Assembly: GCA_903813345.2 (NCBI GenBank)
Contig: CAIIXF020000036.1
Coordinates: 1-64,000, forward strand
Length of the DNA: 64,000 nucleotides
Source of the DNA: Owenia fusiformis
Taxonomy: Eukaryota; Annelida; Polychaeta; Sabellida; Oweniidae
Direction: 5' to 3'
Below, piece after piece: positions 12,151 to 63,945 of the stretch (the first letter of the stretch is position 1; each line of letters starts with the position of its first letter). The position numbers and the translations under genes were made by a program. The notes below the pieces were generated by a model. The model ran no database searches. It saw nothing but the letters and a program-made list of their open reading frames with translations, and was not told the DNA's origin.

Positions 12151-12360
12151 CGGTAACCAGAGAATGCATTCTGCGTGGCTTACCTCCAGACCCTGTGTAG
12201 CAGTGTAGTCAGTATAGCCCCAGAATGCATGCACCTAGGCTTACCCTCAGAACCTCTGTAGTCGCGTAGCCAGTGTGCATGCTCCTAGGCTTACATACAG
12301 ATCCTGTGTAGCAGCGTAGTCAGTGCAGCTAACGTAGCCACAGAATGATTGCTCCTAGGC

Positions 12361-12500
12361 TTACCTCCAGACTCTGTGTAGTTGCGTAGCCAGTGTAGCT
12401 TGCATAGCCACTGCATGCATGTTCCTAGGCTTACCTCCAGACTCTGTGTAGTTGCGTAGCCAGTGTAGCTTGCATAGCCACTGCATGCATGTTCCTAGGC
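12361..12500 (+). repeat. Two identical adjacent 70-bp monomers (type example)
   Basis: Positions 12361-12430 and 12431-12500 are identical 70-bp units, which fixes the monomer length. Such exact neighbours are rare here; most adjacent monomers differ clearly. The same doublet recurs after the phasing marker in the HORs starting at 28905, 37884, 47633 and 55789, so it predates their amplification. In a typical monomer phased at GCTCCTAGG, GTAG occurs near positions 28, 36, 45 and 54, an internal spacing of 8-9 bp. This suggests the monomer core grew from a ~9-bp unit of the form YAGYGTAGY. Confidence 0.93.
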
Positions 12501-15164
12501 TTACCTCCAGACTCTGTGTAGCAGCGTAGTCAGTGTAGCTAGCGTAGCCACCATATGCATGCTCCCAGGGTTACCTCTATACCCTCTGTAGTCGCATAGC
12601 CAGTGCAGCTAACGTAGCCACCGAATGCAGGCCCTTAGGCTAACCTCCAGACTCTGTGTAGCAGCGTAATCACTGTAGCTAGCGTAGCCACAGAATGCAT
12701 GCTCTTAGGCTTACCTGCAGACCCTATGTAGCCGCGTAGCCAGTGTAGTTAGCGTAGCCACCGTATGCATGCTCCCAGGGTTACCTCTATATCCTCTGTA
12801 GTCGTGTAGCCAGTGTAGCTAACGTAGCCAACGAATGTTTGCTCCTAGGCTTACCTCCAGACTCTGTGTAGTCGCGTTGCCAGTGTCGCTTGCGTAGCCA
12901 CTGCATGCATGCCCCTAGGCTTACCTCCAGAACCTATGAAGCCACGTAGCCAGTGTAGCTAGCGTAGCCACCATATGCATGCTCCAAGGGTTACCTCTAT
13001 ACCCTCTGTAGTTCCATAGCCAGTGTAGCTAACGTAGCCACCGAATGCATGCTCCTAGGCTTACATCCATATCCTGTGTAGCAGCGTAGTCAGCGTAGCT
13101 AGCTTAGCTACCGCATTCATGCTCCTCAGCTTACCTCTATACACTCTGTAGTCGCATAGCCAGTGAAGCTAGCGTAGCCCCTGAATGCATGCTCCTAGAC
13201 TTACATCCAGATCCTGTGTAGCATCGTAGTCAGTGTAGCTAGCGTAGCCCCCGTATGCATACTCCTAGGCTTACCTCCAGACTCTGTGTAGCAGCGTAGT
13301 CAGTGTAGCTATCGTAGCCCCAGAATGCATGCTCCTAGGCTTACCTCTATACACTCTGTAGTCGCATAGCCAATGTAGCTAGCTTAGCCCCTGAATACAT
13401 GCTCCTAGGCTTACATCCAGATCCTGTGTAGCAGCGTAGACAGTGTAGCTAGCGTAGCCCCAGAATGCATGCTCCTAGGGTTACCTCCAGAACCTCTGTA
13501 GTCGCGTAGCCAGTGTAGCTAGCTTAGCTACTGCATTCATGCTCCTAGGCTTACATCCAGATCCTGTGTAGCAGCGTAGACAGTGTAGCTAGCGTAGCCC
13601 CAGAATGCATGCTCCTAGGGTTACCTCCAGAACCTCTGTAGTCGCGTAGCCAGTGTAGCTAGCTTAGCTACTGCATTCATAGCCCCTGAATGCGTGCTCC
13701 TTGGCTTACATCCAGACTCTGTATATCAGCATAGCCAGTGTAGCTATTGTAGCCACCGTATGCATGCTCCTAGGGTTACCTCCATACCCTCTGTAGTCGC
13801 GTAGCCAGTGTAGCTAACGTAGCCCCCGAATGCATGCTCCTGGGCTTACCTCCAGACTCTGTGTAGCAGCGTAGTCAGTGTAGCTAGCGTAGATCCTGAA
13901 TACATTCTCCTAGGCTTACCCCCAGAACCTCTGTGTAGTCGTGTAGCCAGTGTGGTTAACGAAGCCACAGAATGCATGCTCCTAGGCTTACCTGCAGACC
14001 CTATGTAGCCGCGTAGCCAGTGTAGGTAGCGTATCGACGGTTTGCATGCTCCCAGGGTTACTTCTATACCCTCTGAAGTCGTGTAGCCAGTGTAGCTAAC
14101 GTAGCCACCGAATGCATGCTCCCAGGGTTACCTCTGTAGTCGTGTAGTCAGTTTACCTAACGTAGCCACCGAATGATTGCTCCTAGGCTTACGTCCAGAC
14201 TCTGTGTAGTCGTGTAGCCAGTGTAGCTAACGTAGCCACCGAATTCATGCTCCTAGGCTTACCTCTAGACTCTTTGTAGCAGCGTAGTCAGTGTAGCTAG
14301 CGTAGCCCCCGAATGAATGCTCCTAGGCTTACCCCCAGAACCTCTGTAGTCGCGTAGCCAGTGTGGCCTACGTAGCTACAGTGTGCATGCTCCTAGGCTT
14401 ACATCCAGATCCTGTGTAGCAGCGTAGTCAGTGTAGCTTAGCTTACCTCTATACATTTTGTAGTTGCATAGCCAATGTAGCTAGCGGAGCCCCTGAATAC
14501 ATGCTCCTAGGCTTACATCCAGACTCTGTGTAGCAGCGTAGTCAGTGTAGCTAGCGTAGCCCCAGAATGCATGCTCCTAGGCTTACCACCAGAACCTCTG
14601 TAGTCGCGTAGCCAGTGTGGTTAACGTATCCACAGAATGCATGCTCCTAGGCTTACCTGCAGACCCAATGTAGCCGCGTAGCCAGTGTAGTTAGTGTAGC
14701 CACTGTATGCATGCTCCCAGGGTTACCTCTATACCCTCTGTAGTCGTGTAGCCAGTGTAGCTAACGCTGCCACCGAATGATTGCTCCTAGGCTTACCTCC
14801 AGACTCTGTGTAGTCGTGTATCCAGTGTAGCTTGCGTAGCTACTGAATGCATGCTCCTAGGCTTACGTCCAGACCCTATGTAGCCACGTAGCCAGTGTAG
14901 CTAGCGTTGCCACAGTATTCATGCTCCCATTGTTACCCTCTGTAGTCGCGTAGCCAGTGTAGCTAACGTAGCGCCTGAATGCATGCTCCTAGGCTTACAT
15001 CCAGATCCTGTGTAAGCAGTGTAGTCAGTGTAGCTAGCGTAGCCCCAGAATGCATGCTCCTAGGCTTACCTGCAGACCCTTTGTAGTCGCATATCCAGAG
15101 TAGCTAACGTAGCCACCGAATGCATGCTCCTAGGCTTACCTTCAGACTCTGTATAGCAGCGTAG

Positions 15165-17275
15165 CCAGTGTAGCTAGCGTAGCCACCGTATGCATGCTCC
15201 TAGGGTTACCTCTATACCCTCTGTTGTCGCATAGCCAGTGTAGCTAACGTAGCCCACGAATGCATGCTCCTAGGTTTACCTCCAAACTCTGTGTAGCAGC
15301 GTAGCCAGTGTAGCTAACGTAGACCCGAATGCATGCTCCTAGGCTTACCTCCAGACTCTGTGTAGCAGCGTAGTCAGTGTAGCTAACGTAGATCCTGAAT
15401 ACATGCTCCTAGGCTTACCCCAAAAACCTCTGTGTAGTCGTGTAGCCAGTGTGGTTAACGAAGCCACAGAATGCATGCTCCTAGCCTTACCTGAAGACCC
15501 TATGTAGCCGCATAGCCAGTGTAGTTAGCGTAGCCACCGTATGCATGCTCCCAGGGTAACCTCTATACCCTCTGTAGTCGTGTAGCCAGTTTACCTAACG
15601 TAGCCACCGAATGATTGCTCCTAGGCTTACCTCCAGACTCTGTGTAGCGGCGTAGTCAGTGTAGCTAGGGTACCAACAGAATGCATGCTCCTAGGCTTAC
15701 CTGCAGACCCTATGTAGGTGCGTAGCCAGTGTAGTTAGCGTAGCCCCCGTATGCATGCTCCCAGGGTAACTCTATACCCTCTGTAGTCGTGTAGCCAGTG
15801 TAGCTAACATAGCCACCGAATGTTTGGTTCTAGGCTTACCTCCAGACTCTGTTTAGTCGCGTAGCCAGTGTAGCTAACGTAGCCTCCGAATGCATGCTCC
15901 TAGGCTTACCTCCAGACTCTGTGTAGCGGCGTAGTCAGTGTAGCTAGGGTACCAACAGAATGCATGCTCCTAGGCTTACCTGCAGACCCTATGTAGGTGC
16001 GTAGCCAGTGTAGTTAGCGTAGCCCCCGTATGCATGCTCCCAGGGTACCTCTATACCCTCTGTAGTCGTGTAGCCAGTGTAGCTAACATAGCCACCGAAT
16101 GTTTGGTTCTAGGCTTACCTCCAGACTCTGTTTAGTCGCGTAGCCAGTGTAGCTTGCGTAGCCACTGCATGCATGCTCCTAGGCTTACCTCCAGACCCTA
16201 TATAGCCACGTAGTCAGTGTAGCTAGCGGAGCCCCTGAATGCATGCTCTTAGGCTTACCCCCAGAACCTCTGTAGTCGTGTAGCAAGTGTAGCTAGCGTA
16301 TCCACCGAATGCATGCTCCTAGGCTTTCCTCTAGACTCTGTGTAGCCGCATAGCCAGTGTAGCTTGCGTAGCCACTGCATGTATGCTCCTAGGCTTACCT
16401 CCAGACCCTATGTAGCCACGTAGTCAGTGTAGCTAGCGTAGCCCCCGAATGCGGGCTCTTAGGCTTACCCCTAGAACCTCTGTAGTCGCGTAGCCAGTGT
16501 GGCTAACGTAGCCACATAATGCATGCTCTTAGGCTTACATGCAGACCCTAGGTAGCCGTGTAGCCAGTGTAGATACAGTAGCCACCGAATGCATGCTCCT
16601 AAGCTTACCTCCAGACTCTCTGTATCAGCAGAGCCAGTGTAGCTAGCGTAGCCACCGTATGCATGCTCCTAGGGTTACCTCTTTACCCTCTGTAGTTGTG
16701 TAGCCAGTGTAGCTAACGTAGCCGCCGTTTGCATGCTCCTAGGGTTACCTCTATACCCTCTGTAGTAGCGTAGCCAGTGTAGCTAGCGTAGCCACCGTAT
16801 GCATGCTCCCAGGGTTACCTCTATACCTTCTGTAGTCGTGTAACCAGTGTAGCTAACGTAGCCACCGAATGCATTCTCCTTGGCTTACCTCCAGACTCTA
16901 TGTAGTCGCGTAGCCAGTGTAGCTAGCGTAGCCACCGTATGCATGCTCCCAGGATTACCTCTATACCCTCTAACGTAGCCACCGAATGCATGCTCCTAGG
17001 CTTACATCCATATCCTGTGTAGCAGCGTAGTCAGTGTAGCTAGCGTAGCCCCAGAATGCATGCTCCTAGGCTTACCTCCAGACTCTGTGTAGCATTGTAA
17101 TCAGTGTAGCTAGCGTAGCCACAGATTGCATGCTCCTAGGCTTACCTGCAGACCCTATGTAGCCGCGTAGCCAGTGTAGTTAGCGTAGCCACCGTATGCA
17201 TGCTCCCAGGGTTACCTCTTTACCCTCTGTAGTTGTGTAGCCAGTGTAGCTAACGTAGCCGCCGTATGCATGCTC
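15165..17275 (+). repeat. Internal duplication inside the HOR, left copy
   Basis: About 2.1 kb that recurs 2.82 kb downstream inside the same HOR. Shared landmarks include CTCTGTTGTCGCATAGCC, GTTTACCTCCAAACTC, AACGTAGACCCGAATG, TGTTTGGTTCTAGG and GCCGCCGTTTGCATG. The boundaries are approximate (tens of bp) because the flanks are related monomers. The same pair is present in copies 2, 5 and 6; copy 3 lost most of the left member and copy 4 lost most of the right member. Confidence 0.78.
15631..16188 (+). repeat. Local tandem duplication of a four-monomer block (279 bp)
   Basis: CTCCAGACTCTGTGTAGCGG occurs at 15631 and again at 15910, 279 bp apart. Four monomers of different families follow each in the same order, including TAGCTAGGGTACCAACAG, GTAGGTGCGTAGCCAG and AACATAGCCACCGAATG. 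This is an intermediate level of organisation between the 70-bp monomer and the 8.16-kb unit. The same pair recurs in the other HORs and in both members of the internal duplication. Confidence 0.8.
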
Positions 17276-17983
17276 CCAGGGTTACCTCTATACGTATCCA
17301 GTGCAGCTACTGTATGCATGCTCCCAGGGTTACTTCTATACCCTTTGTAGTCCCGTAGCCAATGTAGCTAACGTAGCCACCGAATGCATGCTCCTAGGCT
17401 CACCCCCAGAATCTCTGTGTAGCAGAGTAGTCAGTGTAGCTAGCGGGGCCACAGAATGCATGCTCCTAGGCTTACCTCCAGACTCTGTGTAGCTACATAG
17501 CCAGTGTAGTTAGCGTAGCCATCGTATGCATGCTCCCAGGGTTACCTCTTTGCCCTCTGTAGTCGTGTAGCAAGGGTAGCTAACGTATCCACCGAATGCA
17601 TGCTCCTAGGCTTACCTCCAGACCCTATGTAGCCACGTAGTCAGTGTAGCTAGCGTAGCCCCCGAATGCGGGCTCTTAGGCTTACCCCCAGAACCTCTGT
17701 GTATCAGCGTAGCCAGTGTAGCTAGCGTAGCCACCGTATGCATGCTCCTAGGGTTACCTCTTTACCCTCTGTAGTTGTGTAGCCAGTGTAGCTAACGTAG
17801 CCGCCGTATGCATGCTCCTAGGGTTACCTCTATACCCTCTGTAGTAGCGTAGCCAGTGTAGCCACCGTATGCATGCTCCCAGGGTTACCTCTATACCTTC
17901 TGTAGTCGTGTAACCAGTGTAGCTTACGTAGCCACCGAATGCATTCTCCTTGGCTTACCTTCAGACTGTGTGTAGTCTCGTAG

Positions 17984-20095
17984 CCAGTGTAGCTAGCGTA
18001 GCCACCGTATGCATGCTCCTAGGGTTACCTCTATACCCTCTGTTGTCGCATAGCCAGTGTAGCTAACGTAGCCCACGAATGCATGCTCCTAGGTTTACCT
18101 CCAAACTCTGTGTAGCAGCGTAGCCAGTGTAGCTAACGTAGACCCGAATGCATGCTCCTAGGCTTACCTCCAGACTCTGTGTAGCAGCGTAGTCAGTGTA
18201 GCTAACGTAGATCCTGAATACATGCTCCTAGGCTTACCCCAAGAACCTCTGTGTAGTCGTGTAGCCAGTGTGGTTAACAAAGCCACAGAATGCATGCTCC
18301 TAGCCTTACCTGAAGACCCTATGTAGCCGCATAGCCAGTGTAGTTAGCGTAGCCACCGTATGCATGCTCCCAGGGTAACCTCTATACCCTCTGTAGTCGT
18401 GTAGCCAGTTTACCTAACGTAGCCACCGAATGATTGCTCCTAGGCTTACCTGCAGACTCTGTGTAGCGGCGTAGTCAGTGTAGCTAGGGTACCAACAGAA
18501 TGCATGCTCCTAGGCTTACCTGCAGACCCTATATAGGTGCGTAGCCAGTGTAGTTAGCGTAGCCCCCGTATGCATGCTCCCAGGGTACCTCTATACCCTC
18601 TGTAGTCGTGTAGCCAGTGTAGCTAACATAGCCACCGAATGTTTGGTTCTAGGCTTACGTCCAGACTCTGTTTAGTCGCGTAGCCAGTGTAGCTAACGTA
18701 GCCTCCGAATGCATGATCCTAGGCTTACCTCCAGACTCTGTGTAGCGGCGTAGTCAGTGTAGCTAGGGTACCAACAGAATGCATGCTCCTAGGCTTACCT
18801 GCAGACCCTATGTAGATGCGTAGCCAGTGTAGTTAGCGTAGCCCCCGTATGCATGCTCCCAGGGTACCTCTATACCCTCTGTAGTCGTGTAGCCAGTGTT
18901 GCTAACATAGCCACCGAATGTTTGGTTCTAGGCTTACCTCCAGACTCTGTTTAGTCGCGTAGCCAGTGTAGCTTGCGTAGCCACTGCATGCATGCTCCTA
19001 GGCTTACCTCCAGACCCTATATAGCCACGTAGTCAGTGTAGCTAGCGGAGCCCCCGAATGCATGCTCTTAGGCTTACCCCCAGAACCTCTGTAGTCGTGT
19101 AGCAAGTGTAGCTAGCGTATCCACCGAATGCATGCTCCTAGGCTTTCCTCTAGACTCTGTGTAGCCGCATAGCCAGTGTAGCTTGCGTAGCCACTGCATG
19201 TATGCTCCTAGGCTTACCTCCAGACCCTATGTAGCCACGTAGTCAGTGTAGCTAGCGTAGCCCCCGAATGCGGGCTCTTAGGCTTACCCCTAGAACCTCT
19301 GTAGTCGCGTAGCCAGTGTGGCTAACGTAGCCACATAATGCATGCTCTTAGGCTTACATGCAGACCCTAGGTAGCCGTGTAGCCAGTGTAGATACAGTAG
19401 CCACCGAATGCATGCTCCTAAGCTTACCTCCAGACTCTGTGTATCAGCAGAGCCAGTGTAGCTAGCGTAGCCACCGTATGCATGCTCCTAGGGTTACCTC
19501 TTTACCCTCTGTAGTTGTGTAGCCAGTGTAGCTAACGTAGCCGCCGTTTGCATGCTCCTAGGGTTACCTCTATACCCTCTGTAGTAGCGTAGCCAGTGTA
19601 GCTAGCGTAGCCACCGTATGCATGCTCCCAGGGTTACCTCTATACCTTCTGTAGTCGTGTAACCAGTGTAGCTAACGTAGCCACCGAATGCATTCTCCTT
19701 GGCTTACCTCCAGACTCTATGTAGTCGCGTAGCCAGTGTAGCTAGCGTAGCCACCGTATGCATGCTCCCAGGATTACCTCTATACCCTCTAACGTAGCCA
19801 CCGAATGCATGCTCCTAGGCTTACATCCATATCCTGTGTAGCAGCGTAGTCAGTGTAGCTAGCGTAGCCCCAGAATGCATGCTCCTAGGCTTACCTCCAG
19901 ACTCTGTGTAGCATCGTAATCAGTGTAGCTAGCGTAGCCACAGATTGCATGCTCCTAGGCTTACCTGCAGACCCTATGTAGCCGCGTAGCCAGTGTAGTT
20001 AGCGTAGCCACCGTATGCATGCTCCCAGGGTTACCTCTTTACCCTCTGTAGTTGTGTAGCCAGTGTAGCTAACGTAGCCGCCGTATGCATGCTCC
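17984..20095 (+). repeat. Internal duplication inside the HOR, right copy
   Basis: Partner of 15165-17275 at an offset of 2819-2821 bp. It can be told apart by CTGTGTATCAGCAGAGCC instead of CTCTGTATCAGCAGAGCC, and by CAAAGCCACAG instead of CGAAGCCACAG. The edges are approximate. Confidence 0.78.
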
Positions 20096-20307
20096 TAGGG
20101 TTACCTCTATACCCTCTGTAGTAGCGTAGCCAGTGTAGCCACCGTATGCATGCTCCCAGGGTTACCTCTATACCTTCTGTAGTCGTGTAACCAGTGTAGC
20201 TTACGTAGCCACCGAATGCATTCTCCTTGGCTTACCTCCAGACTGTGTGTAGTCGCGGAGCCAGTGTAGCTAGCGTAGCCACCGTATGCATGCTCCCAGG
20301 GTTACCT

Positions 20308-22316
20308 CGGTAACCAGAGAATGCATTCTGCGTGGCTTACCTCCAGACCCTGTGTAGCAGTGTAGTCAGTATAGCTAGCGTAGCACCAGAATGCAAGCAC
20401 CTAGGCTTACCCTCAGAACCTCTGTAGTCGCGTAGCCAGTGTGCATGCTCCTAGGCTTACATCCAGATCCTGTGTAGCAGCGTAGTCAGTGCAGCTAACG
20501 TAGCCACAGAATGATTGCTCCTAGTCTTACCTCCAGACTCTGTGTAGTCGCGTAGCCAGTGTAGCTTGCATAGCCACTGCATGCATGCCCCTAGGCTTAC
20601 ATCCAGACTCTGTGTAGCAGCGTAGTCAGTGTAGCTAGCGTAGCCACCATATGCATGCTCCCAGGGTTACCTCTATACCCTCTGTAGTCGCATAGCCAGT
20701 GTAGCTAACGTAGCCACCCAATTCAGGCCCCCAGGCTTACCTCCAGACTCTGTGTAGCATCGTAATCAGTGTAGCTAGCGTAGCCACAGATTGCATGCTC
20801 CTAGACTTACCTGCAGACCCTATGTAGCCGCGTAGCAAGTGTAGTTAGCGTAGCCACCGTATGCATGCTCCCAGGGTTACCTCTATATCCTCTGTAGTCG
20901 TGTAGCCAGTGTAGCTAACGTAGCCAACGAATGTTTGCTCCTAGGCTTACCTCCAGACTCTGTGTAGTTGCGTTGCCAGTGTCGCTTGCGTAGCCACTGC
21001 ATGCATGCCCCTAGGCTTACATCCAGAACATCTGTAGTTGCGTAGCCAGTGTAGCTAGCTTAGCTACCGCATTCATGCTCCTTTTAGCTTACCTCTATAC
21101 ACTCTGTAGTTGCATAGCCAGTGTAGCTAGCGTAGCCACTGAATGCATGCTCCTAGGCTTACATCCAGATCCTGTGTAGCATCGTAGTCAGTGTAGCTTG
21201 CGTAGCCCCCGAATACATGCTCCTAGGCTTACCTCCAGAATCTGTGTAGCAGCGTAGTCAGTGTAGCTAGCGTAGCCACAGAATGTATGCTCCTAGACTT
21301 ACCTCTATACACTCTGTAGTCGCTTACCCCCAGAACCTCTGTAGTCGTGTAGCCGGTGTGGCTAACGTAGCCACAGAATGCATGCTCCTGGGCTTACCTG
21401 CAGACCATATGTAGCTGCGTAGCCAGTGTAGTTAGCGTAACCATCGTATGCATGCTCCCAGGGTTACCTCTATACCCTTTGTAGTCCCGTAGCCAATGTA
21501 GCTAACGTAGCCACCGAATGCATGCTCCTAGGCTTACCCCAGAATCTCTGTGTAGCAGAGTAGTCAGTGTAGCTAGCGGGGCCACAGAATGCATGCTCCT
21601 AGGCTTACCTACAGACTCTGTAGCTACATAGCCAGTGTGGTTAGCGTAGCCATCGTATGCATGCTCCCAGGGTTACCTCTTTGCCCTCTGTAGTCGTGTA
21701 GCAAGGGTAGCTAACGTATCCACCGAATGCATTCTCCTTGGCTTACCTCCAGACTTTATGTAGTCGCGTAGCCAGTGTAGCTAGCGTAGCCACCGTATGC
21801 ATGCTCCCAGGATTACCTCTATACCCTCTGCATTCGCATAGCCAGTGTAGCTAAGGTAGCCACCGAATGCATGCTCCTAGGCTTACATCCATATCCTGTG
21901 TAGCAGCGTAGTCAGTGTAGCTAGCGTAGCCCCAGAATGCATGCTCCTAGGCTTACCTCCAGAACCACTGTAGTCGCGTAGCCAGTGTGGTTAACGTAGC
22001 CACAGAATGAATGCTGCAAGGCTTACCTCGAGACCATTTGTAGCTGCGTAGCCAGTGTAGCTAGCTTAGCTACCACATTCATGCTCCTTAGCTTACCTCT
22101 ATACACTCTGTAGTCGCATAGCCAATGTAGCTAGCGCAGCCCCTGAATACATGCTCCTAGGCTTACATCCAGACTCTGTGTAGCAGCGTAGTAAGTGTAG
22201 CTAGCGTAGCCCAAGAATGCATGCTCCTAGGCTTACCTCTATACACTCTGTAGTCGCATAGCCCGTGTAGCTAGCGTAGCCCCTGAATGCGTGCTCCTTG
22301 GCTTACATCCAGACTC
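20308..22316 (+). repeat. Q block, full-length example
   Basis: The 2009 bp between the second-form marker and M. It replaces the 1569-bp P block. Distinct contents are GCTCCTTTTAGC, the truncated monomer GTAGTCGCTTACCCCCAG, GTGTAGCCGGTGTGGC, and GTAGTCCCGTAGCCAATG. A Q-like stretch also occupies about 350-1590. Shortened Q' versions that leave into R occur at 34782-35770 and 44035-45015. Confidence 0.82.
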
Positions 22317-25300
22317 TGTATATCAGCATAGCCAGTGTAGCTATTGTAGCCACCGTATGCATGCTCCTAGGGTTACCTCTATACCCTCTGTAGTCGCGTA
22401 GCCAGTGTAGCTAACGTAGCCCCCGAATGCATGCTCCTGGGCTTACCTCCAGACTCTGTGTAGCAGCGTAGTCAGTGTAGCTAGCGTAGATCCTGAATAC
22501 ATTCTCCTAGGCTTACCCCCAGAACCTCTGTGTAGTCGTGTAGCCAGTGTGGTTAACGAAGCCACAGAATGCATGCTCCTAGGCTTACCTGCAGACCCTA
22601 TGTAGCCGCGTAGCCAGTGTAGGTAGCGTATCGACGGTATGCATGCTCCCAGGGTTACTTCTATACCCTCTGAAGTCGTGTAGCCAGTGTAGCTAACGTA
22701 GCCACCGAATGCATGCTCCCAGGGTTACCTCTGTAGTCGTGTAGCCAGTTTACCTAACGTAGCCACCGAATGATTGCTCCTAGGCTTACGTCCAGACTCT
22801 GTGTAGTCGTGTAGCCAGTGTAGCTAACGTAGCCACCGAATTCATGCTCCTAGGCTTACCTCTAGACTCTTTGTAGCAGCGTAGTCAGTGTAGCTAGCGT
22901 AGCCCCCGAATGAATGCTCCTAGGCTTACCCCCAGAACCTCTGTAGTCGCGTAGCCAGTGTGGCCTACGTAGCTACAGTGTGCATGCTCCTAGGCTTACA
23001 TCCAGATCCTGTGTAGCAGCGTAGTCAGTGTAGCTTAGCTTACCTCTATACATTTTGTAGTTGCATAGCCAATGTAGCTAGCGGAGCCCCTGAATACATG
23101 CTCCTAGGCTTACATCCAGACTCTGTGTAGCAGCGTAGTCAGTGTAGCTAGCGTAGCCCCAGAATGCATGCTCCTAGGCTTACCACCAGAACCTCTGTAG
23201 TCGCGTAGCCAGTGTGGTTAACGTATCCACAGAATGCATGCTCCTAGGCTTACCTGCAGACCCAATGTAGCCGCGTAGCCAGTGTAGTTAGTGTAGCCAC
23301 TGTATGCATGCTCCCAGGGTTACCTCTATACCCTCTGTAGTCGTGTAGCCAGTGTAGCTAACGCTGCCACCGAATGATTGCTCCTAGGCTTACCTCCAGA
23401 CTCTGTGTAGTCGTGTATCCAGTGTAGCTTGCGTAGCTACTGAATGCATGCTCCTAGGCTTACGTCCAGACCCTATGTAGCCACGTAGCCAGTGTAGCTA
23501 GCGTTGCCACAGTATTCATGCTCCCATTGTTACCCTCTGTAGTCGCGTAGCCAGTGTAGCTAACGTAGCGCCTGAATGCATGCTCCTAGGCTTACATCCA
23601 GATCCTGTGTAAGCAGTGTAGTCAGTGTAGCTAGCGTAGCCCCAGAATGCATGCTCCTAGGCTTACCTGCAGACCCTTTGTAGTCGCATATCCAGAGTAG
23701 CTAACGTAGCCACCGAATGCATGCTCCTAGGCTTACCTTCAGACTCTGTATAGCAGCGTAGCCAGTGTAGCTAGCGTAGCCACCGTATGCATGCTCCTAG
23801 GGTTACCTCTATACCCTCTGTTGTTGCATAGCCAGTGTAGCTAACGTAGCCCACGAATGCATGCTCCTAGGTTTACCTCCAAACTCTGTGTAGCAGCGTA
23901 GCCAGTGTAGCTAACGTAGACCCGAATGCATGCTCCTAGGCTTACCTCCAGACTCTGTGTAGCAGCGTAGTCAGTGTAGCTAACGTAGATCCTGAATACA
24001 TGCTCCTAGGCTTACCCCAAAAACCTCTGTGTAGTCGTGTAGCCAGTGTGGTTAACGAAGCCACAGAATGCATGCTCCTAGCCTTACCTGAAGACCCTAT
24101 GTAGCCGCATAGCCAGTGTAGTTAGCGTAGCCACCGTATGCATGCTCCCAGGGTAACCTCTATACCCTCTGTAGTCGTGTAGCCAGTTTACCTAACGTAG
24201 CCACCGAATGATTGCTCCTAGGCTTACCTCCAGACTCTGTGTAGCGGCGTAGTCAGTGTAGCTAGGGTACCAACAGAATGCATGCTCCTAGGCTTACCTG
24301 CAGACCCTATGTAGGTGCGTAGCCAGTGTAGTTAGCGTAGCCCCCGTATGCATGCTCCCAGGGTAACTCTATACCCTCTGTAGTCGTGTAGCCAGTGTAG
24401 CTAACATAGCCACCGAATGTTTGGTTCTAGGCTTACCTCCAGACTCTGTTTAGTCGCGTAGCCAGTGTAGCTAACGTAGCCTCCGAATGCATGCTCCTAG
24501 GCTTACCTCCAGACTCTGTGTAGCGGCGTAGTCAGTGTAGCTAGGGTACCAACAGAATGCATGCTCCTAGGCTTACCTGCAGACCCTATGTAGGTGCGTA
24601 GCCAGTGTAGTTAGCGTAGCCCCCGTATGCATGCTCCCAGGGTACCTCTATACCCTCTGTAGTCGTGTAGCCAGTGTAGCTAACATAGCCACCGAATGTT
24701 TGGTTCTAGGCTTACCTCCAGACTCTGTTTAGTCGCGTAGCCAGTGTAGCTTGCGTAGCCACTGCATGCATGCTCCTAGGCTTACCTCCAGACCCTATAT
24801 AGCCACGTAGTCAGTGTAGCTAGCGGAGCCCCTGAATGCATGCTCTTAGGCTTACCCCCAGAACCTCTGTAGTCGTGTAGCAAGTGTAGCTAGCGTATCC
24901 ACCGAATGCATGCTCCTAGGCTTTCCTCTAGACTCTGTGTAGCCGCATAGCCAGTGTAGCTTGCGTAGCCACTGCATGTATGCTCCTAGGCTTACCTCCA
25001 GACCCTATGTAGCCACGTAGTCAGTGTAGCTAGCGTAGCCCCCGAATGCGGGCTCTTAGGCTTACCCCTAGAACCTCTGTAGTCGCGTAGCCAGTGTGGC
25101 TAACGTAGCCACATAATGCATGCTCTTAGGCTTACATGCAGACCCTAGGTAGCCGTGTAGCCAGTGTAGATACAGTAGCCACCGAATGCATGCTCCTAAG
25201 CTTACCTCCAGACTCTCTGTATCAGCAGAGCCAGTGTAGCTAGCGTAGCCACCGTATGCATGCTCCTAGGGTTACCTCTTTACCCTCTGTAGTTGTGTAG

Positions 25301-46585: not shown

Positions 46586-46604
46586 CTCATATTAGGTGGT
46601 CCCA

Positions 46605-46618
46605 AGTTGACAGCCCTG
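46605..46618 (-). repeat. Right terminal inverted repeat
   Basis: AGTTGACAGCCCTG on the + strand, reverse complement CAGGGCTGTCAACT. Similarity to the left end stops after these 14 bp. Confidence 0.87.
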
Positions 46619-46624
46619 CACTGC
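46619..46624 (+). repeat. Target-site duplication, right (CACTGC)
   Basis: Right copy, followed directly by ATGCATCCTCC as in the empty site. Extending to 7 bp fails (C on the left, G on the right). Confidence 0.88.
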
Positions 46625-46774
46625 ATGCATCCTCCTAGGCTTACCTCCAGACCCTATATAGCCACGTAGTCAGTGTAGCTAGCGGAGCCCCCGATTGCAT
46701 GCTCTTGGGCTTACCCCCAGAACCTCTGTAGTCGTGTAGCCGGTGTGGCTAACTGTGTAGCCGGTGTGGCTAAC

Positions 46775-46796
46775 TGTGGCTACGTTAGTAGCCACA
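46775..46796 (+). other. Template-switch hairpin, copy 3
   Basis: Third identical copy, 858 bp before the marker at 47633. It lies in the R block that also carries the transposon. Confidence 0.85.
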
Positions 46797-53600: not shown

Positions 53601-55788
53601 GTAGCCAGTGTAGCTAACGTAGACCCGAATGCATGCTCCTAGGCTTACCTCCAGACTCTGTGTAGCAGCGTAGTCAGTGTAGCTAACGTAGATCCTGAAT
53701 ACATGCTCCTAGGCTTACCCCAAGAACCTCTGTGTAGTCGTGTAGCCAGTGTGGTTAACAAAGCCACAGAATGCATGCTCCTAGCCTTACCTGAAGACCC
53801 TATGTAGCCGCATAGCCAGTGTAGTTAGCGTAGCCACCGTATGCATGCTCCCAGGGTAACCTCTATACCCTCTGTAGTCGTGTAGCCAGTTTACCTAACG
53901 TAGCCACCGAATGATTGCTCCTAGGCTTACCTGCAGACTCTGTGTAGCGGCGTAGTCAGTGTAGCTAGGGTACCAACAGAATGCATGCTCCTAGGCTTAC
54001 CTGCAGACCCTATATAGGTGCGTAGCCAGTGTAGTTAGCGTAGCCCCCGTATGCATGCTCCCAGGGTACCTCTATACCCTCTGTAGTCGTGTAGCCAGTG
54101 TAGCTAACATAGCCACCGAATGTTTGGTTCTAGGCTTACGTCCAGACTCTGTTTAGTCGCGTAGCCAGTGTAGCTAACGTAGCCTCCGAATGCATGATCC
54201 TAGGCTTACCTCCAGACTCTGTGTAGCGGCGTAGTCAGTGTAGCTAGGGTACCAACAGAATGCATGCTCCTAGGCTTACCTGCAGACCCTATGTAGATGC
54301 GTAGCCAGTGTAGTTAGCGTAGCCCCCGTATGCATGCTCCCAGGGTACCTCTATACCCTCTGTAGTCGTGTAGCCAGTGTTGCTAACATAGCCACCGAAT
54401 GTTTGGTTCTAGGCTTACCTCCAGACTCTGTTTAGTCGCGTAGCCAGTGTAGCTTGCGTAGCCACTGCATGCATGCTCCTAGGCTTACCTCCAGACCCTA
54501 TATAGCCACGTAGTCAGTGTAGCTAGCGGAGCCCCCGAATGCATGCCCTTAGGCTTACCCCCAGAACCTCTGTAGTCGTGTAGCAAGTGTAGCTAGCGTA
54601 TCCACCGAATGCATGCTCCTAGGCTTTCCTCTAGACTCTGTGTAGCCGCATAGCCAGTGTAGCTTGCGTAGCCACTGCATGTATGCTCCTAGGCTTACCT
54701 CCAGACCCTATGTAGCCACGTAGTCAGTGTAGCTAGCGTAGCCCCCGAATGCGGGCTCTTAGGCTTACCCCTAGAACCTCTGTAGTCGCGTAGCCAGTGT
54801 GGCTAACGTAGCCACATAATGCATGCTCTTAGGCTTACATGCAGACCCTAGGTAGCCGTGTAGCCAGTGTAGATACAGTAGCCACCGAATGCATGCTCCT
54901 AAGCTTACCTCCAGACTCTGTGTATCAGCAGAGCCAGTGTAGCTAGCGTAGCCACCGTATGCATGCTCCTAGGGTTACCTCTTTACCCTCTGTAGTTGTG
55001 TAGCCAGTGTAGCTAACGTAGCCGCCGTTTGCATGCTCCTAGGGTTACCTCTATACCCTCTGTAGTAGCGTAGCCAGTGTAGCTAGCGTAGCCACCGTAT
55101 GCATGCTCCCAGGGTTACCTCTATACCTTCTGTAGTCGTGTAACCAGTGTAGCTAACGTAGCCACCGAATGCATTCTCCTTGGCTTACCTCCAGACTCTA
55201 TGTAGTCGCGTAGCCAGTGTAGCTAGCGTAGCCACCGTATGCATGCTCCCAGGATTACCTCTATACCCTCTAACGTAGCCACCGAATGCATGCTCCTAGG
55301 CTTACATCCATATCCTGTGTAGCAGCGTAGTCAGTGTAGCTAGCGTAGCCCCAGAATGCATGCTCCTAGGCTTACCTCCAGACTCTGTGTAGCATCGTAA
55401 TCAGTGTAGCTAGCGTAGCCACAGATTGCATGCTCCTAGGCTTACCTGCAGACCCTATGTAGCCGCGTAGCCAGTGTAGTTAGCGTAGCCACCGTATGCA
55501 TGCTCCCAGGGTTACCTCTTTACCCTCTGTAGTTGTGTAGCCAGTGTAGCTAACGTAGCCGCCGTATGCATGCTCCTAGGGTTACCTCTATACCCTCTGT
55601 AGTAGCGTAGCCAGTGTAGCCACCGTATGCATGCTCCCAGGGTTACCTCTATACCTTCTGTAGTCGTGTAACCAGTGTAGCTTACGTAGCCACCGAATGC
55701 ATTCTCCTTGGCTTACCTCCAGACTGTGTGTAGTCGCGGAGCCAGTGTAGCTAGCGTAGCCACCGTATGCATGCTCCCAGGGTTACCT
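47633..55788 (+). repeat. Plain higher-order repeat, copy 5 (8156 bp)
   Basis: Starts with the first marker form; P block; M at 49202, N at 50410, D1 near 52097, D2 near 54916. Collinear with copy 1. The 1-bp shorter length fits the altered monomer near 53445, which reads CCAGAATGGTGTAGTC instead of CCAGACTGTGTGTAGTC. Shares CTGTTGTTGCATAGCC (near 50703) with copy 2 only, and CAGGATTACTTC (near 49534) with copy 6 only. Confidence 0.9.
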
Positions 55789-58700
55789 CGGTAACCAGAG
55801 AATGCATTCTGCGTGGCTTACCTCCAGACCCTGTGTAGCAGTGTAGTCAGTATAGCCCCAGAATGCATGCACCTAGGCTTACCCTCAGAACCTCTGTAGT
55901 CGCGTAGCCAGTGTGCATGCTCCTAGGCTTACATACAGATCCTGTGTAGCAGCGTAGTCAGTGCAGCTACCGTAGCCACAGAATGATTGCTCCTAGGCTT
56001 ACCTCCAGACTCTGTGTAGTTGCGTAGCCAGTGTAGCTTGCATAGCCACTGCATGCATGTTCCTAGGCTTACCTCCAGACTCTGTGTAGTTGCGTAGCCA
56101 GTGTAGCTTGCATAGCCACTGCATGCATGTTCCTAGGCTTACCTCCAGACTCTGTGTAGCAGCGTAGTCAGTGTAGCTAGCGTAGCCACCATATGCATGC
56201 TCCCAGGGTTACCTCTATACCCTCTGTAGTCGCATAGCCAGTGCAGCTAACGTAGCCACCGAATGCAGGCCCTTAGGCTAACCTCCAGACTCTGTGTAGC
56301 AGCGTAATCACTGTAGCTAGCGTAGCCACAGAATGCATGCTCTTAGGCTTACCTGCAGACCCTATGTAGCCGCGTAGCCAGTGTAGTTAGCGTAGCCACC
56401 GTATGCATGCTCCCAGGGTTACCTCTATATCCTCTGTAGTCGTGTAGCCAGTGTAGCTAACGTAGCCAACGAATGTTTGCTCCTAGGCTTACCTCCAGAC
56501 TCTGTGTAGTCGCGTTGCCAGTGTCGCTTGCGTAGCCACTGCATGCATGCCCCTAGGCTTACCTCCAGAACCTATGAAGCCACGTAGCCAGTGTAGCTAG
56601 CGTAGCCACCATATGCATGCTCCAAGGGTTACCTCTATACCCTCTGTAGTTCCATAGCCAGTGTAGCTAACGTAGCCACCGAATGCATGCTCCTAGGCTT
56701 ACATCCATATCCTGTGTAGCAGCGTAGTCAGCGTAGCTAGCTTAGCTACCGCATTCATGCTCCTCAGCTTACCTCTATACACTCTGTAGTCGCATAGCCA
56801 GTGAAGCTAGCGTAGCCCCTGAATGCATGCTCCTAGACTTACATCCAGATCCTGTGTAGCATCGTAGTCAGTGTAGCTAGCGTAGCCCCCGTATGCATAC
56901 TCCTAGGCTTACCTCCAGACTCTGTGTAGCAGCGTAGTCAGTGTAGCTATCGTAGCCCCAGAATGCATGCTCCTAGGCTTACCTCTATACACTCTGTAGT
57001 CGCATAGCCAATGTAGCTAGCTTAGCCCCTGAATACATGCTCCTAGGCTTACATCCAGATCCTGTGTAGCAGCGTAGACAGTGTAGCTAGCGTAGCCCCA
57101 GAATGCATGCTCCTAGGGTTACCTCCAGAACCTCTGTAGTCGCGTAGCCAGTGTAGCTAGCTTAGCTACTGCATTCATGCTCCTAGGCTTACATCCAGAT
57201 CCTGTGTAGCAGCGTAGACAGTGTAGCTAGCGTAGCCCCAGAATGCATGCTCCTAGGGTTACCTCCAGAACCTCTGTAGTCGCGTAGCCAGTGTAGCTAG
57301 CTTAGCTACTGCATTCATAGCCCCTGAATGCGTGCTCCTTGGCTTACATCCAGACTCTGTATATCAGCATAGCCAGTGTAGCTATTGTAGCCACCGTATG
57401 CATGCTCCTAGGGTTACCTCCATACCCTCTGTAGTCGCGTAGCCAGTGTAGCTAACGTAGCCCCCGAATGCATGCTCCTGGGCTTACCTCCAGACTCTGT
57501 GTAGCAGCGTAGTCAGTGTAGCTAGCGTAGATCCTGAATACATTCTCCTAGGCTTACCCCCAGAACCTCTGTGTAGTCGTGTAGCCAGTGTGGTTAACGA
57601 AGCCACAGAATGCATGCTCCTAGGCTTACCTGCAGACCCTATGTAGCCGCGTAGCCAGTGTAGGTAGCGTATCGACGGTATGCATGCTCCCAGGATTACT
57701 TCTATACCCTCTGAAGTCGTGTAGCCAGTGTAGCTAACGTAGCCACCGAATGCATGCTCCCAGGGTTACCTCTGTAGTCGTGTAGTCAGTTTACCTAACG
57801 TAGCCACCGAATGATTGCTCCTAGGCTTACGTCCAGACTCTGTGTAGTCGTGTAGCCAGTGTAGCTAACGTAGCCACCGAATTCATGCTCCTAGGCTTAC
57901 CTCTAGACTCTTTGTAGCAGCGTAGTCAGTGTAGCTAGCGTAGCCCCCGAATGAATGCTCCTAGGCTTACCCCCAGAACCTCTGTAGTCGCGTAGCCAGT
58001 GTGGCCTACGTAGCTACAGTGTGCATGCTCCTAGGCTTACATCCAGATCCTGTGTAGCAGCGTAGTCAGTGTAGCTTAGCTTACCTCTATACATTTTGTA
58101 GTTGCATAGCCAATGTAGCTAGCGGAGCCCCTGAATACATGCTCCTAGGCTTACATCCAGACTCTGTGTAGCAGCGTAGTCAGTGTAGCTAGCGTAGCCC
58201 CAGAATGCATGCTCCTAGGCTTACCACCAGAACCTCTGTAGTCGCGTAGCCAGTGTGGTTAACGTATCCACAGAATGCATGCTCCTAGGCTTACCTGCAG
58301 ACCCAATGTAGCCGCGTAGCCAGTGTAGTTAGTGTAGCCACTGTATGCATGCTCCCAGGGTTACCTCTATACCCTCTGTAGTCGTGTAGCCAGTGTAGCT
58401 AACGCTGCCACCGAATGATTGCTCCTAGGCTTACCTCCAGACTCTGTGTAGTCGTGTATCCAGTGTAGCTTGCGTAGCTACTGAATGCATGCTCCTAGGC
58501 TTACGTCCAGACCCTATGTAGCCACGTAGCCAGTGTAGCTAGCGTTGCCACAGTATTCATGCTCCCATTGTTACCCTCTGTAGTCGCGTAGCCAGTGTAG
58601 CTAACGTAGCGCCTGAATGCATGCTCCTAGGCTTACATCCAGATCCTGTGTAAGCAGTGTAGTCAGTGTAGCTAGCGTAGCCCCAGAATGCATGCTCCTA

Positions 58701-61700
58701 GGCTTACCTGCAGACCCTTTGTAGTCGCATATCCAGAGTAGCTAACGTAGCCACCGAATGCATGCTCCTAGGCTTACCTTCAGACTCTGTATAGCAGCGT
58801 AGCCAGTGTAGCTAGCGTAGCCACCGTATGCATGCTCCTAGGGTTACCTCTATACCCTCTGTTGTCGCATAGCCAGTGTAGCTAACGTAGCCCACGAATG
58901 CATGCTCCTAGGTTTACCTCCAAACTCTGTGTAGCAGCGTAGCCAGTGTAACTAACGTAGACCCGAATGCATGCTCCTAGGCTTACCTCCAGACTCTGTG
59001 TAGCAGCGTAGTCAGTGTAGCTAACGTAGATCCTGAATACATGCTCCTAGGCTTACCCCAAAAACCTCTGTGTAGTCGTGTAGCCAGTGTGGTTAACGAA
59101 GCCACAGAATGCATGCTCCTAGCCTTACCTGAAGACCCTATGTAGCCGCATAGCCAGTGTAGTTAGCGTAGCCACCGTATGCATGCTCCCAGGGTAACCT
59201 CTATACCCTCTGTAGTCGTGTAGCCAGTTTACCTAACGTAGCCACCGAATGATTGCTCCTAGGCTTACCTCCAGACTCTGTGTAGCGGCGTAGTCAGTGT
59301 AGCTAGGGTACCAACAGAATGCATGCTCCTAGGCTTACCTGCAGACCCTATGTAGGTGCGTAGCCAGTGTAGTTAGCGTAGCCCCCGTATGCATGCTCCC
59401 AGGGTAACTCTATACCCTCTGTAGTCGTGTAGCCAGTGTAGCTAACATAGCCACCGAATGTTTGGTTCTAGGCTTACCTCCAGACTCTGTTTAGTCGCGT
59501 AGCCAGTGTAGCTAACGTAGCCTCCGAATGCATGCTCCTAGGCTTACCTCCAGACTCTGTGTAGCGGCGTAGTCAGTGTAGCTAGGGTACCAACAGAATG
59601 CATGCTCCTAGGCTTACCTGCAGACCCTATGTAGGTGCGTAGCCAGTGTAGTTAGCGTAGCCCCCGTATGCATGCTCCCAGGGTACCTCTATACCCTCTG
59701 TAGTCGTGTAGCCAGTGTAGCTAACATAGCCACCGAATGTTTGGTTCTAGGCTTACCTCCAGACTCTGTTTAGTCGCGTAGCCAGTGTAGCTTGCGTAGC
59801 CACTGCATGCATGCTCCTAGGCTTACCTCCAGACCCTATATAGCCACGTAGTCAGTGTAGCTAGCGGAGCCCCTGAATGCATGCTCTTAGGCTTACCCCC
59901 AGAACCTCTGTAGTCGTGTAGCAAGTGTAGCTAGCGTATCCACCGAATGCATGCTCCTAGGCTTTCCTCTAGACTCTGTGTAGCCGCATAGCCAGTGTAG
60001 CTTGCGTAGCCACTGCATGTATGCTCCTAGGCTTACCTCCAGACCCTATGTAGCCACGTAGTCAGTGTAGCTAGCGTAGCCCCCGAATGCGGGCTCTTAG
60101 GCTTACCCCTAGAACCTCTGTAGTCGCGTAGCCAGTGTGGCTAACGTAGCCACATAATGCATGCTCTTAGGCTTACATGCAGACCCTAGGTAGCCGTGTA
60201 GCCAGTGTAGATACAGTAGCCACCGAATGCATGCTCCTAAGCTTACCTCCAGACTCTCTGTATCAGCAGAGCCAGTGTAGCTAGCGTAGCCACCGTATGC
60301 ATGCTCCTAGGGTTACCTCTTTACCCTCTGTAGTTGTGTAGCCAGTGTAGCTAACGTAGCCGCCGTTTGCATGCTCCTAGGGTTACCTCTATACCCTCTG
60401 TAGTAGCGTAGCCAGTGTAGCTAGCGTAGCCACCGTATGCATGCTCCCAGGGTTACCTCTATACCTTCTGTAGTCGTGTAACCAGTGTAGCTAACGTAGC
60501 CACCGAATGCATTCTCCTTGGCTTACCTCCAGACTCTATGTAGTCGCGTAGCCAGTGTAGCTAGCGTAGCCACCGTATGCATGCTCCCAGGATTACCTCT
60601 ATACCCTCTAACGTAGCCACCGAATGCATGCTCCTAGGCTTACATCCATATCCTGTGTAGCAGCGTAGTCAGTGTAGCTAGCGTAGCCCCAGAATGCATG
60701 CTCCTAGGCTTACCTCCAGACTCTGTGTAGCATTGTAATCAGTGTAGCTAGCGTAGCCACAGATTGCATGCTCCTAGGCTTACCTGCAGACCCTATGTAG
60801 CCGCGTAGCCAGTGTAGTTAGCGTAGCCACCGTATGCATGCTCCCAGGGTTACCTCTTTACCCTCTGTAGTTGTGTAGCCAGTGTAGCTAACGTAGCCGC
60901 CGTATGCATGCTCCCAGGGTTACCTCTATACGTATCCAGTGCAGCTACTGTATGCATGCTCCCAGGGTTACTTCTATACCCTTTGTAGTCCCGTAGCCAA
61001 TGTAGCTAACGTAGCCACCGAATGCATGCTCCTAGGCTCACCCCCAGAATCTCTGTGTAGCAGAGTAGTCAGTGTAGCTAGCGGGGCCACAGAATGCATG
61101 CTCCTAGGCTTACCTCCAGACTCTGTGTAGCTACATAGCCAGTGTAGTTAGCGTAGCCATCGTATGCATGCTCCCAGGGTTACCTCTTTGCCCTCTGTAG
61201 TCGTGTAGCAAGGGTAGCTAACGTATCCACCGAATGCATGCTCCTAGGCTTACCTCCAGACCCTATGTAGCCACGTAGTCAGTGTAGCTAGCGTAGCCCC
61301 CGAATGCGGGCTCTTAGGCTTACCCCCAGAACCTCTGTGTATCAGCGTAGCCAGTGTAGCTAGCGTAGCCACCGTATGCATGCTCCTAGGGTTACCTCTT
61401 TACCCTCTGTAGTTGTGTAGCCAGTGTAGCTAACGTAGCCGCCGTATGCATGCTCCTAGGGTTACCTCTATACCCTCTGTAGTAGCGTAGCCAGTGTAGC
61501 CACCGTATGCATGCTCCCAGGGTTACCTCTATACCTTCTGTAGTCGTGTAACCAGTGTAGCTTACGTAGCCACCGAATGCATTCTCCTTGGCTTACCTTC
61601 AGACTGTGTGTAGTCTCGTAGCCAGTGTAGCTAGCGTAGCCACCGTATGCATGCTCCTAGGGTTACCTCTATACCCTCTGTTGTCGCATAGCCAGTGTAG

Positions 61701-63945
61701 CTAACGTAGCCCACGAATGCATGCTCCTAGGTTTACCTCCAAACTCTGTGTAGCAGCGTAGCCAGTGTAGCTAACGTAGACCCGAATGCATGCTCCTAGG
61801 CTTACCTCCAGACTCTGTGTAGCAGCGTAGTCAGTGTAGCTAACGTAGATCCTGAATACATGCTCCTAGGCTTACCCCAAGAACCTCTGTGTAGTCGTGT
61901 AGCCAGTGTGGTTAACAAAGCCACAGAATGCATGCTCCTAGCCTTACCTGAAGACCCTATGTAGCCGCATAGCCAGTGTAGTTAGCGTAGCCACCGTATG
62001 CATGCTCCCAGGGTAACCTCTATACCCTCTGTAGTCGTGTAGCCAGTTTACCTAACGTAGCCACCGAATGATTGCTCCTAGGCTTACCTGCAGACTCTGT
62101 GTAGCGGCGTAGTCAGTGTAGCTAGGGTACCAACAGAATGCATGCTCCTAGGCTTACCTGCAGACCCTATATAGGTGCGTAGCCAGTGTAGTTAGCGTAG
62201 CCCCCGTATGCATGCTCCCAGGGTACCTCTATACCCTCTGTAGTCGTGTAGCCAGTGTAGCTAACATAGCCACCGAATGTTTGGTTCTAGGCTTACGTCC
62301 AGACTCTGTTTAGTCGCGTAGCCAGTGTAGCTAACGTAGCCTCCGAATGCATGATCCTAGGCTTACCTCCAGACTCTGTGTAGCGGCATAGTCAGTGTAG
62401 CTAGGGTACCAACAGAATGCATGCTCCTAGGCTTACCTGCAGACCCTATGTAGATGCGTAGCCAGTGTAGTTAGCGTAGCCCCCGTATGCATGCTCCCAG
62501 GGTACCTCTATACCCTCTGTAGTCGTGTAGCCAGTGTTGCTAACATAGCCACCGAATGTTTGGTTCTAGGCTTACCTCCAGACTCTGTTTAGTCGCGTAG
62601 CCAGTGTAGCTTGCGTAGCCACTGCATGCATGCTCCTAGGCTTACCTCCAGACCCTATATAGCCACGTAGTCAGTGTAGCTAGCGGAGCCCCCGAATGCA
62701 TGCTCTTAGGCTTACCCCCAGAACCTCTGTAGTCGTGTAGCAAGTGTAGCTAGCGTATCCACCGAATGCATGCTCCTAGGCTTTCCTCTAGACTCTGTGT
62801 AGCCGCATAGCCAGTGTAGCTTGCGTAGCCACTGCATGTATGCTCCTAGGCTTACCTCCAGACCCTATGTAGCCACGTAGTCAGTGTAGCTAGCGTAGCC
62901 CCCGAATGCGGGCTCTTAGGCTTACCCCTAGAACCTCTGTAGTCGCGTAGCCAGTGTGGCTAACGTAGCCACATAATGCATGCTCTTAGGCTTACATGCA
63001 GACCCTAGGTAGCCGTGTAGCCAGTGTAGATACAGTAGCCACCGAATGCATGCTCCTAAGCTTACCTCCAGACTCTGTGTATCAGCAGAGCCAGTGTAGC
63101 TAGCGTAGCCACCGTATGCATGCTCCTAGGGTTACCTCTTTACCCTCTGTAGTTGTGTAGCCAGTGTAGCTAACGTAGCCGCCGTTTGCATGCTCCTAGG
63201 GTTACCTCTATACCCACTGTAGTAGCGTAGCCAGTGTAGCTAGCGTAGCCACCGTATGCATGCTCCCAGGGTTACCTCTATACCTTCTGTAGTCGTGTAA
63301 CCAGTGTAGCTAACGTAGCCACCGAATGCATTCTCCTTGGCTTACCTCCAGACTCTATGTAGTCGCGTAGCCAGTGTAGCTAGCGTAGCCACCGTATGCA
63401 TGCTCCCAGGATTACCTCTATACCCTCTAACGTAGCCACCGAATGCATGCTCCTAGGCTTACATCCATATCCTGTGTAGCAGCGTAGTCAGTGTAGCTAG
63501 CGTAGCCCCAGAATGCATGCTCCTAGGCTTACCTCCAGACTCTGTGTAGCATCGTAATCAGTGTAGCTAGCGTAGCCACAGATTGCATGCTCCTAGGCTT
63601 ACCTGCAGACCCTATGTAGCCGCGTAGCCAGTGTAGTTAGCGTAGCCACCGTATGCATGCTCCCAGGGTTACCTCTTTACCCTCTGTAGTTGTGTAGCCA
63701 GTGTAGCTAACGTAGCCGCCGTATGCATGCTCCTAGGGTTACCTCTATACCCTCTGTAGTAGCGTAGCCAGTGTAGCCACCGTATGCATGCTCCCAGGGT
63801 TACCTCTATACCTTCTGTAGTCGTGTAACCAGTGTAGCTTACGTAGCCACCGAATGCATTCTCCTTGGCTTACCTCCAGACTGTGTGTAGTCGCGGAGCC
63901 GGTGTAGCTAGCGTAGCCACCGTATGCATGCTCCCAGGGTTACCT
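55789..63945 (+). repeat. Plain higher-order repeat, copy 6 (8157 bp)
   Basis: Starts with the first marker form; P block; M at 57358, N at 58566, D1 near 60255, D2 near 63076; ends at the marker at 63946. Its P block shares CAGCTACCGTAGCC (near 55965) with copy 3. Its E segment shares AGCATTGTAATC (near 60730) and CCTTCAGACTGTGTG (near 61595) with copy 1. Different parts of the same unit are therefore closest to different copies. Confidence 0.9.

What the first reader, a model, noticed from the sequence alone, without database searches (positions are those of the whole stretch)
12151..63945. Very long higher-order repeat: about 8.16 kb, about 117 monomers of 70 bp
Three full units measure 8157, 8156 and 8157 bp, and marker distances inside units repeat to the base (M to N is 1208 bp in six units). 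Well-known HORs such as human alpha satellite usually have far fewer monomers per unit. Here monomers within a unit are diverged while whole units are almost identical, so amplification acts on very long blocks.
Basis: partly seen in the sequence, partly recalled or inferred. Interest (0 to 1): 0.75.

Follow-up and report, generated by a model that had tools for sequence, protein, structure and literature searches.

The report
Mosaic higher-order satellite repeat array
This is a long non-coding satellite DNA array in which diverged 70-base repeats are grouped into kilobase-sized blocks that have been copied almost unchanged in several orders; the reported 8.16-kb unit is real but is only one of several unit lengths present.

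Summary
Partly confirmed. Apart from one 490-bp insert the whole 64-kb window is a single 70-bp satellite array. Three intervals between copies of one marker monomer are 8157, 8156 and 8157 bp; these units differ by 7-17 mismatches and at most one 1-bp gap, while full-length monomers inside a unit average 81% identity. But only 3 of 8 marker intervals have that length; the others are 8597, 5877, 3102, 6151 and 3598 bp. The unit holds a 2117-bp block twice, so its 120 monomer pieces fall into about 66-79 types. It is a cascading, mosaic higher-order repeat, not a uniform 117-mer. From 21069 on, the window is ten tracts (1.5-8 kb) copied from sequence to their left, plus the insert and two tiny spacers. 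Tracts meet in monomer register, with 8-63 bp of shared sequence at nine junctions examined, which favours homology-guided copying (unequal exchange or break-induced replication) over end joining. Units are not most similar to their neighbours. Host and centromere identity could not be tested. By monomer count the unit exceeds the 59mer described as largest in primates; by length it does not. A good example of a known kind.

The parts
1..64000 (.). 70-bp satellite array (949 pieces in the monomer parse, partial ones and those inside the insert included); consensus GCTCCTAGGCTTACCTCCAGACCCTGTGTAGTCGCGTAGCCAGTGTAGCTAGCGTAGCCACCGAATGCAT
   Evidence: TRF 1-63426 period 70; self-match block 55508-64000; wraparound alignment; typing
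12135..20291 (.). 8157-bp unit U1 (120 monomer pieces)
   Evidence: marker intervals; 7 mismatches to U8
20292..28888 (.). 8597-bp unit with B-type head (types 77 96 ...)
28889..34765 (.). 5877-bp unit: A-type head (77 78 ...), in-phase junction at 31913-31976, one P block
34766..37867 (.). 3102-bp unit, short B type
37868..44018 (.). 6151-bp unit: A type with P1, without P2 (junction 43727-43752)
44019..47616 (.). 3598-bp unit, short B type carrying the 490-bp insert
47617..55772 (.). 8156-bp unit U7
55773..63929 (.). 8157-bp unit U8
15160..17276 (.). P1 block (2117 bp) inside U1
   Evidence: lag-2819 self-match; P1/P2 classes separated by 8 fixed differences
17979..20095 (.). P2 block, second copy of P inside U1
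2177..4433 (.). first copy of a 2257-bp tandem duplication (lag 4186, 100% identical)
6363..8619 (.). second copy of the 2257-bp duplication
46129..46618 (.). 490-bp non-satellite insert, MITE-like, with 14-bp terminal inverted repeats matching at 13 positions (read by eye)
   Evidence: the only run of >=100 unique 40-mer starts is 46090-46618
46123..46128 (.). left copy of 6-bp target-site duplication CACTGC
   Evidence: empty sites at 11137-11142 and 36870-36875
46619..46624 (.). right copy of target-site duplication CACTGC

Best explanation
A non-coding satellite array with a nested (cascading, mosaic) higher-order structure. About 8 kb of diverged 70-bp monomers supplies the founder sequence. 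Blocks of about 1.5-8 kb were then copied repeatedly, joined in register with the 70-bp monomer, by homology-guided events: unequal exchange between sisters or homologues, or out-of-register break-induced replication. The duplication of the P block came before the amplification of the 8157-bp unit, and the MITE came after the copying of its segment. Shown by sequence: the nesting, the block copies, in-phase junctions with shared sequence, the order P duplication then unit amplification, the empty sites. Inferred: that exchange or BIR is the agent, and that the array lies in centromeric or other heterochromatin of a eukaryote.
For: Parse: 8573 of 64000 bases are not copies of window sequence to their left (490 of them the insert); from 21069 on there are ten copied tracts of 1469-7950 bp, the insert and two spacers of 32 and 3 bases. 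Junction search (blocks >=800 bp, overlap -3 to 70): 30 places, many of them copies of one another; 2 are empty sites of the insert, 1 is a 1-bp indel, the other 27 are in monomer phase in every row printed (at most four rows per place). Nine hand-picked junctions: the two source sequences share exact runs of 8-63 bp. Merged to seven classes, smallest run each: median 15 against 10 for random in-phase pairs, p=0.0016; random phase-free joins share >=8 bp in 0.8%. Ten full P copies: 12-17 differences between P1 and P2 classes, 1-10 within, 8 fixed differences, 0 of 78 informative site pairs failing the four-gamete test. U8 is closer to U1, 43.6 kb away (7 mismatches), than to adjacent U7 (17 plus a gap). 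No stop-to-stop ORF of 150 aa or more, no Rfam match at gathering score, no tRNA.
Against: Exact matches of 10 bp or more are in phase 98.9% of the time anyway, so phase adds little beyond homology length. The nine junctions were chosen by hand from 27 places and the seven classes may not be independent; the other places were not scored for run length. Junctions with unmatched spacers (e.g. 8620-8634, 16085-16139, 35771-35802) are not in the set. Junction phases are not significantly in more conserved positions (p=0.16). Exchange and BIR cannot be told apart. The order of near-identical blocks depends on an assembly that could not be checked.
Confidence: 0.8

Rival explanations
1. A regular 8.16-kb, ~117-monomer HOR array, the other intervals being local variants.
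For: 3 of 8 marker intervals are 8156-8157 bp and these units are near-identical; 8157 is the most frequent of the tallied 40-mer spacings.
Against: 5 of 8 intervals differ, none of them alike; lags 8156/8157 together reach 39.3% of the stated region; the unit contains a 2117-bp internal duplication.
Confidence: 0.3
2. The block order is partly an assembly artefact of near-identical units.
For: Blocks of up to 8493 bp at 99.9% identity and a 2257-bp duplication at 100% are the kind of sequence that assemblers misplace.
Against: Examined junctions share only 8-63 bp, short for an overlap-based misjoin, and several recur in more than one unit. Units carry distinguishing SNPs (19 variant columns over five 3353-bp heads).
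Confidence: 0.12
3. The array is the active centromere of its chromosome, and long-block copying reflects breakage and repair there.
For: Established knowledge: rich HORs are best known from centromeres. One survey concludes that most species do not show rich HORs (PMC10153287, section 2.9 read), so their presence is notable.
Against: No direct test was possible. No CENP-B box by a recalled consensus; dyads fewer than in shuffles (one 3-kb segment, 15 shuffles); mean fold z-scores positive (30 segments of 140 bp). None of these excludes a centromere.
Confidence: 0.4

Closest known systems
Cascading 59mer alpha-satellite HOR, orangutan chromosome 13 (PMC11276891; passages seen)
   Same: Very long HOR unit with repeated monomer types; monomers in a copy diverge by 22.4%, copies by 0.1%; canonical and variant copies interspersed.
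   Different: ~171-bp monomers (about 10 kb per unit by my multiplication), 59 monomers of 57 types, six canonical and two variant copies. Here 70-bp monomers, 120 pieces of about 66-79 types, 8.16 kb, and only 3 of 8 intervals of the main length.
Meloidogyne satellite HORs (PMC3694981; passages seen)
   Same: Non-primate HORs with long and short variants; junctions lie in sequence shared by the joined monomers.
   Different: Short HORs of several, partly unrelated, monomers with a CENP-B-box-like motif. Here one monomer family, no such box found, and junction phases not significantly more conserved (p=0.16).
Alpha-satellite array change linked to break-induced replication (PMC11034957; passages seen)
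   Same: Proposed out-of-register, homology-guided copying of long stretches of an HOR array.
   Different: There measured as copy-number change in human cells that depends on RAD52 and PIF1; here inferred from sequence only.

Membership tests
Higher-order repeat satellite array | Monomers within a unit clearly diverged, whole units nearly identical | tested here: met
   Full-length monomers in a unit about 0.81 identical; three units 7-17 mismatches in 8157
Higher-order repeat satellite array | Unit repeated head to tail with constant monomer order | tested here: inconclusive
   U7 and U8 are adjacent and colinear, but only 3 of 8 marker intervals have the unit length
Regular (Willard-type) HOR | All monomer types in the unit different | tested here: not met
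   120 pieces, 66-79 types at edit thresholds 3 to 1; P block present twice
Cascading HOR (term as in PMC11276891, passages) | Some monomer types repeated inside the canonical unit | tested here: met
   P1/P2 duplication and a local 279-bp repeat
Alpha satellite | ~171-bp monomer | tested here: not met
   70-bp period; also 0 CENP-B box matches with a recalled consensus
Centromeric satellite | CENH3/CENP-A occupancy or cytological position at the centromere | not testable with these tools
   No host genome held; no chromatin data
MITE (insert 46129-46618) | Short, non-coding, terminal inverted repeats, target-site duplication | tested here: met
   490 bp, 14-bp TIR with 13 matches read by eye, 6-bp TSD, two empty sites; no ORF of 150 aa or more
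MITE (insert 46129-46618) | Many copies elsewhere in the genome, related to an autonomous transposon | not testable with these tools
   No host genome held

The most novel reading that the evidence does not exclude
A five-level nested satellite (about 8.75-bp subunit, 70-bp monomer, 279-bp local repeat, 2.1/2.8-kb P block, units of 3.1-8.6 kb) that spreads mainly by long-tract, non-local, in-register copying. It would have more monomers per HOR unit than any I found in my searches, and would be a readable record of break-induced-replication-like copying at a non-primate centromere.
Probability: 0.25. Interest if true: 0.6.

Novelty: new member of a known kind. Interest (0 to 1): 0.4.

Why it matters
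[quoted passage not shown] An array outside alpha satellite whose blocks carry enough SNPs and junctions to read the order of copying makes the question 'unequal crossover or break-induced replication?' testable in another lineage. If it is just one more satellite array, it is still a clear case in which counting marker spacings overstates regularity.

Tried and rejected
Rejected: protein-coding repeat (no stop-to-stop ORF of 150 aa or more in six frames); known structured RNA or tRNA array (mean fold z +0.52 and +0.72 with RNA parameters over 30 segments of 140 bp); dyad-rich satellite (fewer dyads than shuffles in one 3-kb segment); the telomeric motifs tried (0 matches); a regular 25733-bp superperiod (its longest match is 7950 bp).

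Led nowhere: host identification. No whole genome held. No exact match to satellite patterns in viral contigs or genome contigs; no match of a 1050-bp satellite stretch in plasmids or of the insert in phages; none to two insert patterns in viral contigs. By their descriptions these are viral, prokaryotic, phage and plasmid collections, so absence says little about eukaryotes. Literature: nine searches listed no paper whose title or abstract start pointed to this satellite; two 20- and 24-base strings were among the terms, and the four papers listed held neither. PMC11630843 was opened with a word search that found none of its six terms; PMC12692304 gave no useful passage on HORs.

Weak or mixed: junction phases in more conserved parts of the monomer (p=0.16). 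Transitions in CpG-like contexts: 7 of 16 in P blocks and 3 of 9 in heads, against about 21% of sites, a hint of CpG methylation at most. Four-gamete test: 0 of 78 pairs in P but 3 of 6 in heads, all through one site: one exchange or one recurrent mutation. Heads and P copies were taken as ungapped blocks, so their lack of indels is partly by selection; partial P copies before 10 kb were left out. MAFFT misaligned U7 with U1 and U8 (559 spurious gap columns); replaced by a one-gap comparison. The first p value for junction homology (0 of 5000) used nine junctions of which two pairs overlap; the seven-class value is the one to use.
Full report
What is there. TRF reports one 70-bp array over 1-63426, and a wraparound alignment gives 949 monomer pieces with a 70-bp consensus. 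A scan in 200-bp steps finds only 46201-46600 unlike the consensus, and base-level comparison puts the insert at 46129-46618. So the array is not bounded by 12151-63945; it fills the window. There is no stop-to-stop ORF of 150 aa or more, no Rfam match at gathering score and no tRNA.

Higher-order structure. The 949 pieces (insert included) comprise 221 distinct sequences in 112 types when clustered at up to two edits. Marker type 77 occurs nine times; the eight intervals are 8157, 8597, 5877, 3102, 6151, 3598, 8156 and 8157 bp. The three equal units differ by 7 mismatches (U1/U8), 14 plus one 1-bp gap (U7/U1) and 17 plus one 1-bp gap (U7/U8). Full-length monomers within a unit average 0.81 identity. 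It is not uniform: two head types (77 78... and 77 96...), units with one or two P blocks, and short B-type units alternate. Of the eleven successive 40-mer spacings tallied, 8157 (within 3 bp) is the most frequent with 4798 of 52726, closely followed by 2819 with 4661.

The unit is nested. P1 (15160-17276 in U1) and P2 (17979-20095) are copies 2819 bp apart. Over ten full P copies the two classes differ by 12-17 bases between classes and 1-10 within, with 8 fixed differences; partial P copies before 10 kb were left out. So the P duplication predates the amplification of the 8157-bp unit. A local repeat at lag 279 bp (about four monomers) is also present. The consensus monomer divides into eight 8-9-base subunits better than any of 300 dinucleotide shuffles (score 47; shuffle mean 36.3, maximum 44), which suggests, without proving, an older 9-bp repeat.

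How it was built. A left-to-right parse leaves 8573 of 64000 bases that are not copies of window sequence to their left. From 21069 on the sequence is ten copied tracts of 1469-7950 bp, the 490-bp insert and two spacers of 32 and 3 bases. A junction search on blocks of 800 bp or more found 30 places, many of them copies of one another. Two are the empty sites of the insert, one is a 1-bp indel, and the other 27 are in monomer phase in every row printed. At nine hand-picked junctions the source sequences share exact runs of 8-63 bp. With seven merged classes and the smallest run of each, this exceeds random in-phase pairs (median 15 against 10, p=0.0016), and random phase-free joins share 8 bp or more in only 0.8%. 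Because exact matches of 10 bp or more are nearly always in phase (98.9%), homology length is the informative part. Junctions with unmatched spacers were not scored.

Which mechanism. Shared sequence of 8-63 bp in register points to homologous exchange or break-induced replication rather than end joining. Similarity is non-local. U8 is closest to U1, 43.6 kb away, not to its neighbour U7; P1 at 58798 differs from P1 at 15160 by 1 base and from P1 at 50642 by 5. That argues against simple successive duplication of neighbours. In the P blocks 0 of 78 site pairs fail the four-gamete test. In five 3353-bp heads 3 of 6 fail, all through one site, consistent with one exchange between units or one recurrent mutation. 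Break-induced replication has been linked to change of human arrays (PMC11034957, passages); here it is an inference.

The insert. It is 490 bp, with 14-bp terminal inverted repeats matching at 13 positions (by eye; the repeat scan reports the inner 9 bp) and a 6-bp target-site duplication CACTGC. The same site is empty at 11137-11142 and 36870-36875. The simplest reading is that it entered after this block had been copied. Its superfamily is not named here.

Function. A centromeric or other heterochromatic role is plausible from general knowledge of HORs but untested. No CENP-B box was found with a recalled consensus, and dyads and folds are not enriched in the samples examined. CpG observed/expected is 0.57 in the window and 1.33 in the insert.

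Comparison. The orangutan 59mer is described as the largest HOR unit in primates, with 59 monomers of 57 types, 22.4% monomer divergence and 0.1% copy divergence (PMC11276891, passages). Here there are more monomers per unit, but each is shorter, so the unit (8.16 kb) is below 59 x 171, about 10 kb. The same paper's term 'cascading HOR', a unit with repeated monomer types, fits. [quoted passage not shown] it also reports a 9659-bp repeat unit in a fungus and calls such long units infrequent (PMC10153287, section 2.9 read). The host of this window is unknown; that it is a eukaryote, and not a primate array, is inferred from the satellite and from its not being alpha satellite.

Verdict: a real, large, nested HOR mosaic of a known kind; the stated regular 8.16-kb unit is one form among several.

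Noticed in passing
46129-46618: 490-bp MITE-like insert with TSD CACTGC, a run of 14 C, repeated TGTCACGCA motifs on both strands, and a 21-bp minisatellite at 46460-46577.
   Followed up: partly
2177-4433 and 6363-8619: 2257-bp tandem duplication at lag 4186 with 100% identity: probably the youngest block event in the window, or an assembly duplication.
   Followed up: partly
1-64000 (monomer consensus): The 70-bp monomer resolves into eight 8-9-base subunits related to CGTAGCCAG; strong spectral lines at 8.75, 6.36 and 17.5 bp.
   Followed up: partly
11252-11296, 36985-37029, 46734-46778: Short 21-bp tandem (GTGTAGCCGGTGTGGCTAACT, 2.1 copies, 100% match) in three paralogous segments.
   Followed up: no
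1-64000: CpG observed/expected 0.57 in the window against 1.33 in the insert; a modest excess of transitions in CpG-like contexts.
   Followed up: partly
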